The notes below the pieces were generated by a model, which had not been told where the DNA came from, did not search any database, and saw nothing but the letters and a program-made list of their open reading frames with translations. Position numbers and translations under genes: made by a program. This document shows, one piece after another, positions 11,025-18,117 of a stretch of 64,000 nucleotides of DNA (positions within the stretch are counted from its first letter, which is position 1; every line of letters begins with the position of its first letter). Source of the stretch: Candidatus Heimdallarchaeota archaeon (GTDB lineage Archaea; Asgardarchaeota; Heimdallarchaeia; JABLTI01); assembly GCA_018238155.1 (NCBI GenBank), contig JABCTZ010000001.1:1-64000 (forward strand), written 5' to 3'.

Positions 11025-11046
11025 GAAGGTTGAAATTATAACCTTC
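11025..11046. terminator. Hairpin between convergent genes
   Basis: GAAGGTT (11025-11031) and AACCTTC (11040-11046) form a 7-bp stem, followed by TTTT. It lies after the Fe-S protein gene and overlaps the end of the convergent protease gene, so it could serve either strand. Confidence 0.4.
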
Positions 11047-13015
11047 TTTTACGAGATTTCATTTTAAAGATAAAAGCCATAATTGGTATGAGAATCATAA
11101 CTGGTAAAATTAGTTTTAACGATGATGATTTGGAAAGGCTAATTCTCTCTAGGTTTGATGTCAATTTGTAAAGTGATCTAAAAGCTAGAAATGCATCTAT
11201 ATAATTCATTGCTGCTAATGCTGTTTCTCCATCACTAACAACTTGATCTAATTCTGCAAGAATTGTCGTATTATGTAATGCATCTTCTCGATAAGCGTCA
11301 ATTACTGGTTTATTTCGGAAGAAATTTACAAAACTCGAGGTTCTGTAAAGAGAATCTTTCAAGAATATTGAGAAATCGGGTGCACCTATGGTGTAGTAGC
11401 TCATCACATCACTCATAAATCCGCCTGCACCTTCGATTGCATCATTTGTTATTTCAGAATGGGCAAATCCTAAAACGTGTCCTATTTCGTGGATCAAGAG
11501 AGTTGACAGTCCAGATCGAGGTGTTGTTCCATCACTAGCAAAATAACGATTAAGGTCTTTATAACAAACAACATTGCCAACACCACCTAATCCAGTGTAC
11601 TCTCTATAAGCACCATACGACCAAGCAACCATTGAAACGTTTTGAAGTAAGATTACCCAAGAGGTAAAAATAGCATCTCCTTTACTCATATTGAAATAAT
11701 TTTCAGCCACATTTTGGAAATCATAGAAAATATTTACTCCATCAAGATATGTCCAGTTAGGATTATACCAAGGATACGTTCCTATGTCCTCAAATCCCAA
11801 AGTTCTATCATTTAGTATCTGGTTTAGTTCTAGATTTTCTGTTAATTCCACCCATTTATCTTCTAGGGATATTGTAGCTACTTCATTTGGAACCACATAC
11901 TCAAAGGCGTCTTCAACAACTTCTTCATGATAAATCCATTCTAGGTCCTCTTGACTGTATCCGTGAGCAGTTTCATTGTTAATGAATAATATCTGTGCAC
12001 TCACTTCTCTTTCATTATACAACAACCCATCACCACGACCTCCAACATCTATAACGATATCATTCAAGTAATCGATCAAATATGTATTGAGATGAGTAAT
12101 ATATTCTGATGATCCTGTGATATTATTTCCAAGATAAGTATCTAGGTCTGCTGTAAGGTAATCAAAATCACCTTCATAGAAGTCACTATTCCACCAAATG
12201 TCTGTCCATTTTGTGTACCATTGATGACTAAAAGGATCAACAAAGAAGACTCTGTTCTGGAAACCCCAACATGGATAAGGAAATTCAACATTAGGATTTA
12301 AATCGTTGTCCCATTCTAACCGCCACCAATCAGCTGTCACATTGGAATCTGGGTCTTCCTCATCAATTTCAAACCAATGTTCAAAGCTATGGTCTGAAGT
12401 ATCAAATCTTGACTGATTTAAAAGATAAATGGCATAACTTGGTTTTGGTGCAGAATAGCCCGGGTTAGTAACTAAATATTGTTCGAGTGCTTCTCCATCG
12501 ATTGCTCTTCCTTCCTGTTCGTAGAAGATAGACATCCTTTCACCTGTGCTTTCTTGCAAATTTAACTGAGTTGTATTTAGTGCACTAGTAGTGCCATTCC
12601 ATGAATTTGTGTCAATAAAAGTGTCTAAAGTTGACTCGTAACTTGGAGTTGTAAAATGAAAATTATATTCTAATGTGATATTTAAATCAAGTAGTGAATC
12701 ATATTTGTGAGTGACGTCATTCCATACGGAATCAATTCCAATATAGTAAACACTTTCACTCAAACTATTGGACATCATTGCCATATCAATATAATTTTCT
12801 TCGTATCCCGTAAAGACTAAATCTATAGGAATAGTTATTTCTGCAATTGGGATACCTTCAACATTAAATGAAATGCCTTCTGCATTGTTGTTCATCAATG
12901 AACGATTTGTAATCTTATTGAATGAAATACCAAAAAAGAGTACAATTATCAGAAAACTGGTTATTCTTCTCCTTTTTTGAAGGAAGGAGATGTTTGCTCT
13001 TTGGTTTTGGACCAT
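11036..13015 (-). CDS. Secreted metzincin-type zinc protease, membrane anchored
   Basis: An N-terminal basic stretch and hydrophobic helix (about residues 16-32) act as a signal or anchor. The active site near residue 505 is HEIGHVLGFAHS, which fits the metzincin signature HExxHxxGxxH. It is followed about 20 residues later by SDVMSYY, a plausible Met-turn. A C-terminal membrane helix (about 635-653) ends in KMKSRKRRL, so the catalytic domain is displayed outside the cell. The region before the active site (about 450 residues) is unrecognised and rich in Trp, Tyr and Asp. ATG 13015 has GGAG 9 nt upstream. It is the first gene of a block of surface proteins and may process them; that is inference. 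Confidence 0.85.
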   Translation of the reverse strand: MVQNQRANISFLQKRRRITSFLIIVLFFGISFNKITNRSLMNNNAEGISFNVEGIPIAEITIPIDLVFTGYEENYIDMAMMSNSLSESVYYIGIDSVWNDVTHKYDSLLDLNITLEYNFHFTTPSYESTLDTFIDTNSWNGTTSALNTTQLNLQESTGERMSIFYEQEGRAIDGEALEQYLVTNPGYSAPKPSYAIYLLNQSRFDTSDHSFEHWFEIDEEDPDSNVTADWWRLEWDNDLNPNVEFPYPCWGFQNRVFFVDPFSHQWYTKWTDIWWNSDFYEGDFDYLTADLDTYLGNNITGSSEYITHLNTYLIDYLNDIVIDVGGRGDGLLYNEREVSAQILFINNETAHGYSQEDLEWIYHEEVVEDAFEYVVPNEVATISLEDKWVELTENLELNQILNDRTLGFEDIGTYPWYNPNWTYLDGVNIFYDFQNVAENYFNMSKGDAIFTSWVILLQNVSMVAWSYGAYREYTGLGGVGNVVCYKDLNRYFASDGTTPRSGLSTLLIHEIGHVLGFAHSEITNDAIEGAGGFMSDVMSYYTIGAPDFSIFLKDSLYRTSSFVNFFRNKPVIDAYREDALHNTTILAELDQVVSDGETALAAMNYIDAFLAFRSLYKLTSNLERISLSKSSSLKLILPVMILIPIMAFIFKMKSRKRRL

Positions 13016-13216: not shown

Positions 13217-15661
13217 ATGTTAAATAAACTCATTAAATCGTTAGTTAAAGTTCTCTTTCTTGGAACTATTCTCTCGCTTTTATCTCTCTCTCTCACATCT
13301 GGTAATATTTCAGAGAAAACTGAATATATGCACGATTTAGATACATCACCAATTGGCAATAGCTTATCATTCAAACCAAAAGCAAATCCAAGAGCTCCTT
13401 CTCTAATTGTCTCTCAAGTTTACGAAATTAATGATGATTATCTTGGAGGTAGCACTGGTGATGATGATAATATTGTGGATGCGGGAGAAACTATTGAGTT
13501 ACGTTTGCAACTAGAAAATACTGGTGATCAAGGAGTTACAGATGTTTATGGAAACCTAACCTCATTAAATCCCTTTGTTTCTATAAGTTCCTCAAATCAG
13601 ACTTATATTGGGATAGCCGCTGGTGAGACTGGAATTTCTTCATCTTATTACATAATCGAATTTGATAGTAAATTGAATGAAAGTGAAATTATTAGTTTTA
13701 CTTTAGAGATAACAGCAAATGAAGGGATATGGTTCGATACATTTACTCTAACAGTTGTTGGTGTCCCTGAACCGGTCTTTTATGGTCACAGTGTAACAAG
13801 TGAAAATGATGGTGACCTAAATGCTGATGATGATGATGTAATTGATCCTGGTGAAGAAATTGATTTTCGATTATATGTTGAAAACATTGGAGGAAGTAAT
13901 TTCTTTGATGTTGATGGTTATTTGACATCATCTGATCCTTATGTGACAGTTGATGATGGTTTTGGCGGTTTTGGTACAATTGACGGAAATGGTTCTACAG
14001 ACTATGGTTATTTTGGAATAATTGTGAGTGGTGGTTGCCCTCTTCAATACCATATTCCTTTCAACCTCTCACTAGTAGACGATTTTGGTCATTTTTGGAA
14101 TTTAAGTATTGAGCTTGTTGTTAGTGGGCATCCTGAATACGATTTGTTGGACATTACCTTCAAGGAACGATATGGTGATCATGACAGCTACATTGACGCA
14201 GGTGAGACTTGGTATGCAAGTATTACTTTACGAAATATTGGTGATGCTATAGGTCCAAGTGTAGAAGTTGGTCTTACTTCTGATGATGATGAAATTGATT
14301 TTTATTATTCAAATACTGCTCTGTCATTTGGGGATCTTTATGCAGGTTTTATAGACACTAGAACAGGAACCTATGATTGGCAATTTACCATCTCTGATAG
14401 AGCTTCAAAAGATCAACAATTGAATTTCAACATTGTTATCAATGACGATAGTGGTGGACCAACGAGTGTTATCAGTACTTCTGTACAACTTGTTGGCGTT
14501 ACAGATTTTGAGTTGATTGCTTTCGAAATAGTGGAAGATTGTTATTACGAAGACGATTGTAATGGTATAATCGATGCTGGGGACACATATAATGTCAATA
14601 TTACTATTATGAACATCGGGAAAACAACTGGTAATGATATTGAAGTTTACCTCGTTTCTTCTGACAGTTATGTTAATTTCTATTATGGAAATGGAACTGA
14701 TTCTAACTCATTTGATCCAATGGATGAAGGCGAGTCAGATTATTATTATGATAGTTATTATTGGGAATTTACTATTTCAGAAAAGGCAAAAACTGGTAGA
14801 GTGCTTAATTTCACAATTGTAATTGTAGATGCATCCCTAAGAGAATGGCACTTTCCAGTTAGTATAATCGTTGAAGATGGTCCAAACACGTTCTTTTATA
14901 CTCTTGAAGGTATTGTGGTACTCATTTGTGCTCCGATAGTTTTTCTAGGATTCTGCGTTTTCCCATATATACGAAAACGGAATAAAGCTAACAAAGATGG
15001 AACCACTGTTAGTTTTGGTGATAAATTTAATAGCTGGCGTGAAGAAAATAAACAGAAACGAGCAAAGAAACACAAACAACGGAATAAAGAACGAGCTCAA
15101 AAAATGAAAGAGAAAGAAGTCATACGGCAAGAGCAAGAAAGAAAAAGAATTGCTTATATAAATGCCAATGAAAAGAAGCTGCTCGAGAAATTTGAAACTA
15201 TTCTCAAGATGACTGAAAGTGTAGAAATATCTGATGTAGCAAAAAGCCTAGCGATATCAGAATCACAATTATTTGAAAAGTTGATTCAATGGCAAGATGT
15301 GCTTCCTTTCAAAATTGATGGTGATTTCATTGAAGTACAAAATACTACTGATTTCACTCAATCTGTTAGAGAAAAAATAGCTGAAATTTCTAAATACTAC
15401 TCATGTTATCAATGCGGTTTTCCAATTGAAAGTACAAGTCAAATCTGTCCTGACTGTAAAAGTGATGTCATTAAATGTGCTGTTTGTAAACTACCAATAT
15501 CATTTGGTGATGAAATAGGTAGTTGTGTTTTATGTGAAACAAAAGGTCATTTAACACACATGCAAGAATGGTTGAAAACTCAAGGGACATGTCCTGTTTG
15601 TTTACAGAAATTACCTGTCGAGGGTTTAATGCAAAAGAAAACTAAATCGAAAAAGAAATAA
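13217..15661 (+). CDS. Surface repeat protein with cytoplasmic winged-helix and RING-like zinc finger
   Basis: A signal peptide (residues 1-30) is followed by four beta-sandwich repeats of about 125 residues. Each opens with a D/G-rich element ending in DAGE or DPGE and then a LxNxG motif (for example VDAGETIELRLQLENTG), as in CARDB-like domains. A membrane helix lies near residue 565. A Lys/Glu-rich coiled coil follows, then a winged-helix-like stretch (SVEISDVAKSLAISESQLFEKLI), a zinc ribbon (CYQCGF and CPDC) and a final finger CAVC-x11-CVLC-x4-H-x2-H-x10-CPVC that resembles a RING-H2. So the outside part may sense and the inside part may bind partners. The ubiquitin-ligase idea is speculative; the topology is well supported. 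Confidence 0.82.
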   Translation: MLNKLIKSLVKVLFLGTILSLLSLSLTSGNISEKTEYMHDLDTSPIGNSLSFKPKANPRAPSLIVSQVYEINDDYLGGSTGDDDNIVDAGETIELRLQLENTGDQGVTDVYGNLTSLNPFVSISSSNQTYIGIAAGETGISSSYYIIEFDSKLNESEIISFTLEITANEGIWFDTFTLTVVGVPEPVFYGHSVTSENDGDLNADDDDVIDPGEEIDFRLYVENIGGSNFFDVDGYLTSSDPYVTVDDGFGGFGTIDGNGSTDYGYFGIIVSGGCPLQYHIPFNLSLVDDFGHFWNLSIELVVSGHPEYDLLDITFKERYGDHDSYIDAGETWYASITLRNIGDAIGPSVEVGLTSDDDEIDFYYSNTALSFGDLYAGFIDTRTGTYDWQFTISDRASKDQQLNFNIVINDDSGGPTSVISTSVQLVGVTDFELIAFEIVEDCYYEDDCNGIIDAGDTYNVNITIMNIGKTTGNDIEVYLVSSDSYVNFYYGNGTDSNSFDPMDEGESDYYYDSYYWEFTISEKAKTGRVLNFTIVIVDASLREWHFPVSIIVEDGPNTFFYTLEGIVVLICAPIVFLGFCVFPYIRKRNKANKDGTTVSFGDKFNSWREENKQKRAKKHKQRNKERAQKMKEKEVIRQEQERKRIAYINANEKKLLEKFETILKMTESVEISDVAKSLAISESQLFEKLIQWQDVLPFKIDGDFIEVQNTTDFTQSVREKIAEISKYYSCYQCGFPIESTSQICPDCKSDVIKCAVCKLPISFGDEIGSCVLCETKGHLTHMQEWLKTQGTCPVCLQKLPVEGLMQKKTKSKKK

Positions 15662-15800: not shown

Positions 15801-15888
15801 TTACTTGTTTGTATGGTAAATAATGTTGAGCTTTAAATTTCAAGTCGCCCTTATTGTCTTTTGTATAAACTTCAAGGAAGATGATAAA

Positions 15889-18117
15889 ATGAAATTAACA
15901 CGAGACTTTAGAAAAAAAACCCCAAGGATACTTGGAGTAATTATTTTGTGCTTTGTAGTTGGACTCACTGCTGTGAAATGTAACGGTGGTCTTAATGTTG
16001 AAACTAACTATAGTGAATTATCTGACAATTCTTTAAACGACTCAATTTATAAAATCGATGCTACCGATCCGGATGACTATGCGCGAATATCGAAAAGTGA
16101 TGACAATCATGGACATTTTGAAGATATCTTCAAAGAAGGAAACAATATTTACATTGCTACTTCTGATGGTGGATTACTAATTGTTGATACTACAGTTAAA
16201 AGTAATCCTGTCCTAAAAGGACAATACGATGAAGAATTATCTTTTAATGATGTTTATGTTGAAGGAAATTATGCTTTTGTAGATCATAAAAATATTCTTT
16301 TTGTGATTGATATTACCAGCACCACAAATCCAAGCAAAGCTGGAGAATTTACATTCAGTGATACAACCTATATTTACGATATTTGTGTAAAAGGAAGTTA
16401 TGTTTTCGTTGCGTGTGGTCTTGACGGCTTAAAGGTCTTAGATATTAGTACCCTTAGTAATATGCAAGTTGTTGACACCTATGAAGATACTAACAATGGT
16501 TGGATAGATACCCTATACATATCTGGCAATCAATTACATTTAGGTGGTAATGGATTAGATTATATAATTTTAGACTGTACAACCCCTACAAGTTTATCGT
16601 TAGTGGGTAATTATACACCACTTGATAGTATAACAGAAATTTTCATTGATGGAAATCATGCCTTTTTAGGAGAAAGTGGTAATCCAGGTATAGAAATAAT
16701 CTCTATTATTACTCCGGCATCTCCAACGCAAGTAGCAACTTTAAGTGATGCATGCATCGACATTTCAGTTTCTAATGAGATTATTTTTGCCAATGAATAC
16801 GCTAGTGGTTTAGCGATGTATAATATTAGTGATATTGCACATCCAAGTTTAATCACAAAAGTGAATGTTTCCACATCAAATCTTTTGATTGAAGGAGACT
16901 ATCTCTATTCTAGATTAACATTTGAGCGATTAGATATTTGGAATATTTCAAATGTCACGGATATTGTTGAAATAGGAGTGTTTTATTCAACAGGTTTTGC
17001 TCATAGAGTAGCCGTTTCAGGCAACTACGCGTACGTTGCTGATGAACGCGATGGTTTAGAAATAATTGATATTTCGGATCCAATAAATCCAACAAAAGTT
17101 TATTCATATAAATTTAATATCACATCTAGAGTTTATGATGTTTATATCGTTGGAAATAAATTGTACGTTGCTCATGGTGGGTATGGATTATTCATTTTTG
17201 ATATTACTAATAAAGCAAATCCAACACTTCTAGGAACTTATGACACTATATTAGGCAAAGCAAGAGGTATTGCTGTTAACGGAGATACTGCTTATCTTGC
17301 AAATGAATACAATGACTTTGAAGTTCTTGACATTTCCAATCCTGCTGCTGTGACGAGAGATATCCATGCAGTTACTATGGGTTGGTGCTATGATCTTGTA
17401 GCTGTTAATAATTTTCTCTATGTCGCTACTGGTGTCTGGGGAATGTTAATTTATGATATAAGCGTTCAACATGCTATTGACTACAAAGGTACTTTTGATA
17501 ATGTATTTGGTTCAACTCTTGGAATTGCTGTTTCAGGTGATTATGCATACGTAGCTGATAATGGTCAAGGATTGCGAGTTGTTGATGTCAGTGATAAAGA
17601 ACATCCTACACAAGAAGATCAGTACAAAAATTGGGGCTATGTCTACGATGTCAATATTCAAGGAGACACAGCTTATTTAGGCACTTCTTCAGGTTTAGTT
17701 ATTCTTGATATTTCAGATCCAACTGCTCTTGTAGAAATCGGTTTAGATTTTCGCTTGCAGGACTGTCGTTCAGCGATTCCAAAAGATGCTTTCATTTTGG
17801 TTGCTTCTGGTGGAAGTGGATTACAGATAGCTGGTAAGGATTCTGATTCTGATTTATTAGCAGATTACCTTGAGACTGAAAAATATCTTACAGACCCAAA
17901 TAATCCAGATACCGATGGCGATGGAGTCATTGATGGTATTGAAGTAATTCTTGGTTATGATCCTTTAGATCCTGATGACTTTCCTACTAGCATTCCTCCA
18001 TCATTGACTCAACCGACAGGAAAATCTACTCTTGGTACAATGCCATCAATAATCATCATGATTTCATTTGCCTTAGCAACAATTAGTTGTTTCACCTTGA
18101 AACGTAAAAAACGGTAA
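15889..18117 (+). CDS. Secreted LVIVD-repeat beta-propeller, calcium-binding C-terminus, membrane anchored
   Basis: About a dozen repeats of 40-45 residues carry the LVIVD pattern, for example YAYVADERDGLEIIDISDP and YAYVADNGQGLRVVDVSD. They should form one or two beta-propellers. Near residue 665 a thrombospondin-type-3-like Ca2+ loop follows (DSDSDLLADYLE, then DPNNPDTDGDGVIDGIE). A short Pro/Thr linker leads to a C-terminal membrane helix and KRKKR. I chose ATG 15889 because GGAAG is 8 nt upstream and the protein then starts with a normal signal peptide (MKLTRDFRKK plus hydrophobic core). An ATG at 15823 would add 22 unlikely residues. The probable role is adhesion or cell-surface binding. 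Confidence 0.88.
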   Translation: MKLTRDFRKKTPRILGVIILCFVVGLTAVKCNGGLNVETNYSELSDNSLNDSIYKIDATDPDDYARISKSDDNHGHFEDIFKEGNNIYIATSDGGLLIVDTTVKSNPVLKGQYDEELSFNDVYVEGNYAFVDHKNILFVIDITSTTNPSKAGEFTFSDTTYIYDICVKGSYVFVACGLDGLKVLDISTLSNMQVVDTYEDTNNGWIDTLYISGNQLHLGGNGLDYIILDCTTPTSLSLVGNYTPLDSITEIFIDGNHAFLGESGNPGIEIISIITPASPTQVATLSDACIDISVSNEIIFANEYASGLAMYNISDIAHPSLITKVNVSTSNLLIEGDYLYSRLTFERLDIWNISNVTDIVEIGVFYSTGFAHRVAVSGNYAYVADERDGLEIIDISDPINPTKVYSYKFNITSRVYDVYIVGNKLYVAHGGYGLFIFDITNKANPTLLGTYDTILGKARGIAVNGDTAYLANEYNDFEVLDISNPAAVTRDIHAVTMGWCYDLVAVNNFLYVATGVWGMLIYDISVQHAIDYKGTFDNVFGSTLGIAVSGDYAYVADNGQGLRVVDVSDKEHPTQEDQYKNWGYVYDVNIQGDTAYLGTSSGLVILDISDPTALVEIGLDFRLQDCRSAIPKDAFILVASGGSGLQIAGKDSDSDLLADYLETEKYLTDPNNPDTDGDGVIDGIEVILGYDPLDPDDFPTSIPPSLTQPTGKSTLGTMPSIIIMISFALATISCFTLKRKKR

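What the first reader, a model, noticed from the sequence alone, without database searches (positions are those of the whole stretch)
13217..15661. Surface repeat protein with a RING-like finger inside the cell
The predicted topology puts four CARDB-like domains outside and a winged helix, zinc ribbon and C-x2-C-x11-C-x2-C-x4-H-x2-H-x10-C-x2-C finger inside. Membrane receptors ending in a RING-like finger are a eukaryotic theme. If the finger is a true RING, the protein could be an archaeal membrane ubiquitin-ligase-type receptor.
Basis: partly seen in the sequence, partly recalled or inferred. Interest (0 to 1): 0.75.

Follow-up and report, generated by a model that had tools for sequence, protein, structure and literature searches.

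The report
Archaeal surface receptor ending in RING
This archaeal gene, from a close relative of eukaryotes, makes a cell-surface protein whose inner end is a RING zinc finger of the kind that in eukaryotes attaches ubiquitin, in a genome that also has ubiquitin and its enzymes, so it may be a very early membrane ubiquitin-ligase receptor, although ligase activity has not been shown.

Summary
ORF 13217-15661 (814 aa) has a signal segment, four beta-sandwich (CARDB-like) repeats, one transmembrane helix, a basic linker, a winged helix, a zinc ribbon (ZnR) and a RING. The spacing is x12, not x11, between C757 and C770. All 12 zinc ligands are invariant in 23 relatives. AlphaFold gives the RING pLDDT ~90 and Foldseek places it with GATOR2/IFT-A C-terminal ZnR-RINGs and U-boxes, not plain ribbons.

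The host is a Heimdallarchaeia-type Asgard archaeon with ubiquitin ending in GG, a canonical E2, ThiF/E1-like genes and ESCRT-I. Across 228 Asgard genomes the ZnR-RING module and E2 co-occur almost perfectly (159 both, 56 neither, 13 discordant), which favours a ubiquitin-linked role over a purely structural one. In this genus the same tail is fused to many ectodomains and to WD40, HEAT, LRR and TPR parts.

Best reading: a type I membrane RING receptor that recruits E2~ubiquitin, p ~0.6. Against: the nearest solved relatives use this RING for assembly, and the activating "linchpin" residue is Leu here although Lys/Arg in most other Asgard copies inspected. A membrane-anchored metzincin protease is a conserved neighbour. 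New variant of a known kind.

The parts
13217..15661 (+). whole gene: type I membrane protein with cytosolic winged helix - zinc ribbon - RING (814 aa)
13217..13306 (+). signal segment (residues 1-30)
   Evidence: hydrophobic segment 5-23 preceded by lysines, also in orthologues
13397..13762 (+). extracellular beta-sandwich repeat 1 (61-182)
   Evidence: repeat alignment; strands in weak AF2 model
13763..14128 (+). extracellular beta-sandwich repeat 2 (183-304)
14129..14494 (+). extracellular beta-sandwich repeat 3 (305-426)
14495..14884 (+). extracellular beta-sandwich repeat 4 (427-556)
   Evidence: weak CARDB hit at 454-487
14903..14980 (+). transmembrane helix (563-588)
   Evidence: hydropathy 2.58; helix 563-588 in model
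14987..15151 (+). basic, helical cytosolic linker (591-645)
   Evidence: sequence; helix 601-645
15152..15340 (+). winged helix (about 646-708)
   Evidence: AF2 helix-helix-helix-strand-strand pattern, pLDDT ~70-84; winged-helix proteins among weaker Foldseek hits
15404..15457 (+). zinc ribbon, ligands C730 C733 C744 C747
   Evidence: invariant in 23 sequences; DZR hit 23.4 bits, below cut-off
15476..15601 (+). RING, ligands C754 C757 C770 C773 H778 H781 C792 C795; putative E2-contact residues V756, W785, P793; L796 at linchpin position
11036..13015 (-). conserved neighbour: secreted, membrane-anchored metzincin-type protease (HEIGHVLGFAH and Met-turn DVMSYY), head to head with the RING gene
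   Evidence: adjacent in all five genus genomes that hold the RING orthologue

Best explanation
A single-pass (type I) plasma-membrane RING protein of an Asgard archaeon. The ectodomain of four Ig/CARDB-like sandwiches binds a ligand, a cell-wall part or a neighbouring membrane protein (inferred). The cytosolic winged helix and zinc ribbon place the RING (inferred). The RING binds the cell's E2~ubiquitin through V756/W785/P793 and directs ubiquitin onto the receptor itself or onto associated membrane proteins (inferred). Ubiquitylated membrane proteins would then be read by ESCRT-I (Vps23 UEV/Vps28, encoded here). The adjacent membrane-anchored metzincin may cut the ectodomain or its partners (speculative). 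Shown here: architecture, RING fold, purifying selection, genomic presence of Ub/E1-like/E2/ESCRT-I, phylum-wide co-occurrence of the module with E2, and fusion of the same tail to many different ectodomains.
For: RING fold and invariant ligands. V756 and W785 correspond to srfp I30 and W58, whose mutation abolished or impaired the Caldiarchaeum E3 (PMC5654768; the positional match is my inference); both are invariant in 23 tails. Ubiquitin ends in GG; the E2 has HPN, a catalytic-type Cys, F in loop 4 and PA in loop 7. Module/E2 co-occurrence 159 both, 56 neither, 13 discordant, phi 0.86, concordant within two genera (g44: both in G165-166, neither in G167-170; g46: both in G174, neither in G173). 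Modular fusion to SBP_bac_5, LVIVD propeller and CARDB-like ectodomains and to WD40/HEAT/LRR/TPR. Asgard ESCRT-I binds ubiquitin in vitro (PMC9192718). TM RINGs with an ectodomain-sized segment occur elsewhere in Asgards (L169, L176).
Against: Nearest solved relatives (GATOR2, IFT-A) use this ZnR-RING for assembly; a ubiquitin role there 'remains to be determined' (PMC9646525). The linchpin is L796; it is never K/R among the 23 tails, though K/R in nearly all copies inspected outside the genus. V/W/P are also present in GATOR2 RINGs, so they do not discriminate. The gene is not linked to E1/E2/Ub genes. Co-occurrence tests the module, not this protein, and shared ancestry inflates it.
Confidence: 0.6

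Rival explanations
1. The ZnR-RING is an assembly domain, as in GATOR2/SEA and IFT-A: it pairs with other ZnR-RING tails and tethers the surface protein to a cytosolic scaffold, with no ubiquitin chemistry.
For: Best PDB matches by sequence and fold are GATOR2 MIOS/WDR24/WDR59 and IFT-A WDR19; same C-x2-C-x4-H-x2-H pattern; linchpin lost in this genus; the genome has over ten ZnR-RING tails that could pair, including a WD40-wH-ZnR-RING.
Against: Near-perfect co-occurrence of the module with E2 across Asgards, with parallel absences; copies outside the genus keep K/R at the linchpin; E2-contact residues are invariant here.
Confidence: 0.27
2. A membrane-tethered adaptor that binds E2 or ubiquitin without stimulating transfer (pseudo-E3), for instance heterodimerising with an active RING such as the simple two-TM RINGs.
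For: E2-face residues kept but linchpin lost; many RING paralogues available as partners. Inactive/active RING pairs are known in eukaryotes (own knowledge).
Against: No direct evidence of pairing; not all active RINGs need the linchpin (own knowledge).
Confidence: 0.1
3. A ligand-responsive surface protein whose winged helix/zinc ribbon acts on nucleic acid or transcription, the RING being incidental.
For: A winged helix sits in the tail; TFIIE and SmtB-like folds appear among weaker Foldseek hits.
Against: ZnR-RING is the most conserved part (dN/dS 0.024); the module occurs without a winged helix on other TM proteins.
Confidence: 0.03

Closest known systems
C-terminal zinc ribbon-RING of GATOR2/SEA subunits (MIOS, WDR24, WDR59) and IFT-A WDR19
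   Same: zinc ribbon followed by RING with C-x2-C-x4-H-x2-H; best sequence and fold match
   Different: those are soluble WD40/solenoid coat-like proteins; here the module sits on a membrane protein with an extracellular part. The WD40-wH-ZnR-RING paralogue L090 is closer in layout.
Eukaryotic single-pass RING E3 receptors (RNF13 PA-TM-RING type, ZNRF3/RNF43)
   Same: signal peptide - ectodomain - TM - cytosolic RING; RNF13, ZNRF1 and ZNRF3 RINGs are among weak sequence hits
   Different: no PA domain, C4H2C2 rather than C3H2C3 ligands, extra winged helix and ribbon; an analogue in layout, not a shown homologue as a whole protein
Caldiarchaeum subterraneum srfp RING E3 (PMC5654768)
   Same: archaeal RING working with Ub/E1/E2; matching E2-contact positions
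   Different: small protein in a ubiquitin operon, with the R69 linchpin; ours is membrane-bound, unlinked and has Leu there
Nse1 (winged helix plus RING-like domain)
   Same: winged helix next to a RING variant; weak fold hits
   Different: soluble SMC5/6 subunit, no ectodomain

Membership tests
RING-type zinc finger (fold) | eight ordered Cys/His ligands with RING spacing | tested here: met
   C4H2C2, invariant in 23 sequences; PF13639 23 bits in genome scan, 16.7-19.4 in hmmscan, all below the cut-off of 27.3
RING-type zinc finger (fold) | RING/U-box fold with cross-brace | tested here: met
   AF2 pLDDT ~90; Prp19 U-box TMt 0.79, rmsd 1.8 A over 55 columns; GATOR2/IFT-A RINGs E 4e-5 to 1e-3. 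The cross-brace is inferred from the fold match; zinc geometry was not measured.
RING E3 ubiquitin ligase | hydrophobic residue before C2, Trp, and Pro between C7 and C8 (E2 contact) | tested here: met
   V756, W785, P793 invariant
RING E3 ubiquitin ligase | K/R linchpin after last ligand | tested here: not met
   L796; L, Q or S in the 23 tails of A3, K/R in most other Asgard copies inspected
RING E3 ubiquitin ligase | cognate Ub, E1 and E2 in the cell | tested here: met
   which ThiF protein is the ubiquitin E1 is not settled
RING E3 ubiquitin ligase | stimulates ubiquitin transfer | not testable with these tools
   needs biochemistry
GATOR2/IFT-A type ZnR-RING tail | ribbon + RING with C-x2-C-x4-H-x2-H | tested here: met
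GATOR2/SEA subunit | N-terminal WD40 propeller and alpha-solenoid | tested here: not met
   absent from this protein
PA-TM-RING E3 | protease-associated ectodomain | tested here: not met
   no PA domain hit; four beta-sandwich repeats instead
CARDB (PF07705) | score above gathering cut-off | tested here: not met
   19.6 bits vs 22.7; resemblance only

The most novel reading that the evidence does not exclude
Asgard archaea possess a modular family of transmembrane RING ubiquitin-ligase receptors, with interchangeable sensor ectodomains (CARDB-like, solute-binding, beta-propeller) on one conserved ZnR-RING output. They link outside signals to ubiquitin and ESCRT before eukaryotes arose, and share an origin with the GATOR2/IFT ZnR-RING tails.
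Probability: 0.45. Interest if true: 0.9.

Novelty: new variant of a known kind. Interest (0 to 1): 0.72.

Why it matters
The one archaeal ubiquitin cascade reconstituted in the papers read here uses a small RING protein from a compact operon (PMC5654768), and those papers say little about Asgard E3s. A receptor-type RING, and a whole family with swappable ectodomains, would put signal-regulated ubiquitylation at the cell surface on the archaeal side of eukaryogenesis. It offers a direct test of where membrane E3s and the GATOR2-type RING tails came from.

Tried and rejected
Two plain zinc ribbons: rejected, fold search finds RING/U-box. Chance cysteine pattern: rejected by conservation and dN/dS. 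Pseudogene: rejected for the window copy; only the G007 orthologue shows a frameshift, on a fragmented assembly. Membership in PA-TM-RING or GATOR2 as whole proteins: rejected on domains. The full-length AF2 model is too weak (pLDDT 51) to assign the ectodomain fold, so only its strand pattern is used. A broad alignment (A1) was too divergent for the search for related loci. Foldseek hits to methyltransferases and CadC/SmtB were taken as winged-helix noise.

Full report
OBSERVATION. The ORF at 13217-15661 encodes 814 aa. It has a signal segment, one later transmembrane helix followed by RKRNK, and a basic tail; 10 of 11 N-glycosylation sequons lie before the TM and 10 of the 13 ecto/tail cysteines after it. 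The ectodomain holds four repeats that align with each other (23-28% identity) and form four blocks of strands in a weak full-length model (pLDDT 51). Pfam CARDB is below cut-off.

FOLD. AlphaFold2 on residues 636-814 with 22 relatives gives block pLDDT of about 77-92 over the ribbon and RING, near 90 in the RING. Foldseek against the PDB returns IFT-A (WDR19) and GATOR2 subunits first (E 4e-5 to 1e-3) and the Prp19 U-box at TMt 0.79, rmsd 1.8 A. Profile search of PDB sequences agrees: MIOS, WDR24, WDR19, WDR59, then RING E3s; the RING alone aligns without gaps with the rice protein EL5. So it is a RING, not two ribbons. Coordinates could not be read, so the cross-brace itself is inferred from the fold match.

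HOST AND PATHWAY. Close relatives are 'Candidatus Heimdallarchaeota' MAGs. The genome holds 29 candidate RING matches at E<=10, 11 over the Pfam cut-off, against none over cut-off in 14 control genomes. It has a 77-aa ubiquitin ending in GG, a 157-aa E2 with HPN, a catalytic-type Cys, F in loop 4 and PA in loop 7, three ThiF/E1-like proteins, a JAB-ThiF-E2-like cluster on C13, and Vps23-UEV next to Vps28. Asgard UEV proteins bind ubiquitin in vitro (PMC9192718).

A MODULAR FAMILY. The ZnR-RING tail recurs in this genus on very different proteins: SBP_bac_5 solute-binding ectodomain-TM (L127, L128), LVIVD/TSP3-TM (L092), a large ectodomain-TM-helical repeat (L091, L119-L126), small ectodomain-TM-wH (L086, L112), two-TM proteins (L109, L114, L116), and soluble WD40-wH (L090), HEAT/PCI (L085), LRR (L108) and TPR (L111) proteins. 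This looks like sensor- or substrate-swapping on a common output domain. Proteins with a signal-like segment, an ectodomain-sized stretch, a TM and a ZnR-RING also occur in other Asgard families (L169, L176).

LINK TO UBIQUITIN. Over 228 Asgard genomes the module (E<=1e-6) is in 167 and an E2 (E<=1e-10) in 164; both 159, neither 56, discordant 13, phi 0.86. Discordant genomes are often incomplete. Absences fall together in four families and also within two genera (g44, g46), so the pattern is not one clade alone, though genomes are not independent and the Fisher p value (2e-38) overstates it. This speaks for a role with E2.

E3 HALLMARKS. V756 and W785, matching positions shown to matter in the Caldiarchaeum RING E3 (I30, W58; PMC5654768), and P793 are invariant in 23 tails. 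GATOR2 RINGs keep these too, so they do not discriminate. The linchpin after the last ligand is Leu here and L, Q or S in the 23 tails, while most other Asgard copies inspected have K or R; R69 in the Caldiarchaeum protein is important (that R69 is the residue after the last ligand is my reading). So an ancestral E3-like RING is likely, and this genus changed one activating residue. In the SEA complex the RINGs play a structural role and a ubiquitin function is open (PMC9646525).

SELECTION AND NEIGHBOURS. dN/dS versus the closest orthologue: ectodomain 0.18, winged helix 0.08, ZnR-RING 0.024. The gene is adjacent to a secreted, membrane-anchored metzincin-type protease in all five genus genomes holding the orthologue, head to head in three and convergent in two. 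The pair kept its linkage through a rearrangement, which suggests a functional tie. In the more distant G039 the link is not seen.

LITERATURE. Searches for Asgard with RING/E3 terms found no description of transmembrane RING receptors in the titles, abstracts and passages read; the library is open-access only, so prior description elsewhere is possible.

VERDICT. A real, conserved transmembrane ZnR-RING protein. Ubiquitin-ligase receptor is the best reading (0.6); an assembly role is the main rival (0.27). Ligase activity, zinc binding and ligand remain untested.

Noticed in passing
L090 (own genome C27:6500-10500): A soluble WD40 - winged helix - ZnR-RING protein with a layout like GATOR2 WDR24/WDR59; its RING has lost the Trp but has Arg at the linchpin.
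   Followed up: partly
L127, L128: An ABC-type solute-binding domain (SBP_bac_5, 130 bits) fused through a TM helix to ZnR-RING, suggesting a nutrient-sensing membrane RING protein.
   Followed up: partly
window 11036-13015 (-): Metzincin-type protease (HEIGHVLGFAH, Met-turn) with signal segment and C-terminal TM, linked to the RING gene in five genomes.
   Followed up: yes
own genome C13, L098:5683-8503: Cluster of JAB protease, ThiF/E1-like, ubiquitin-like and E2-like genes, possibly a second ubiquitin-like conjugation set.
   Followed up: no
own genome C1, L103:14457-17001: Three tandem two-TM RING proteins in a row.
   Followed up: no
L108: LRR - winged helix - ZnR-RING fusion in an archaeon.
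   Followed up: no
window 15823-18117 (+): LVIVD beta-propeller surface protein with TSP3 repeat; an LVIVD/TSP3 protein of the same genome is fused to a ZnR-RING in L092.
   Followed up: no
phylum-wide ZnR-RINGs (L160-L180 vs A3): Linchpin K/R is kept in nearly all copies inspected outside the genus but replaced by L/Q/S in the 23 tails from the genus of the window.
   Followed up: partly
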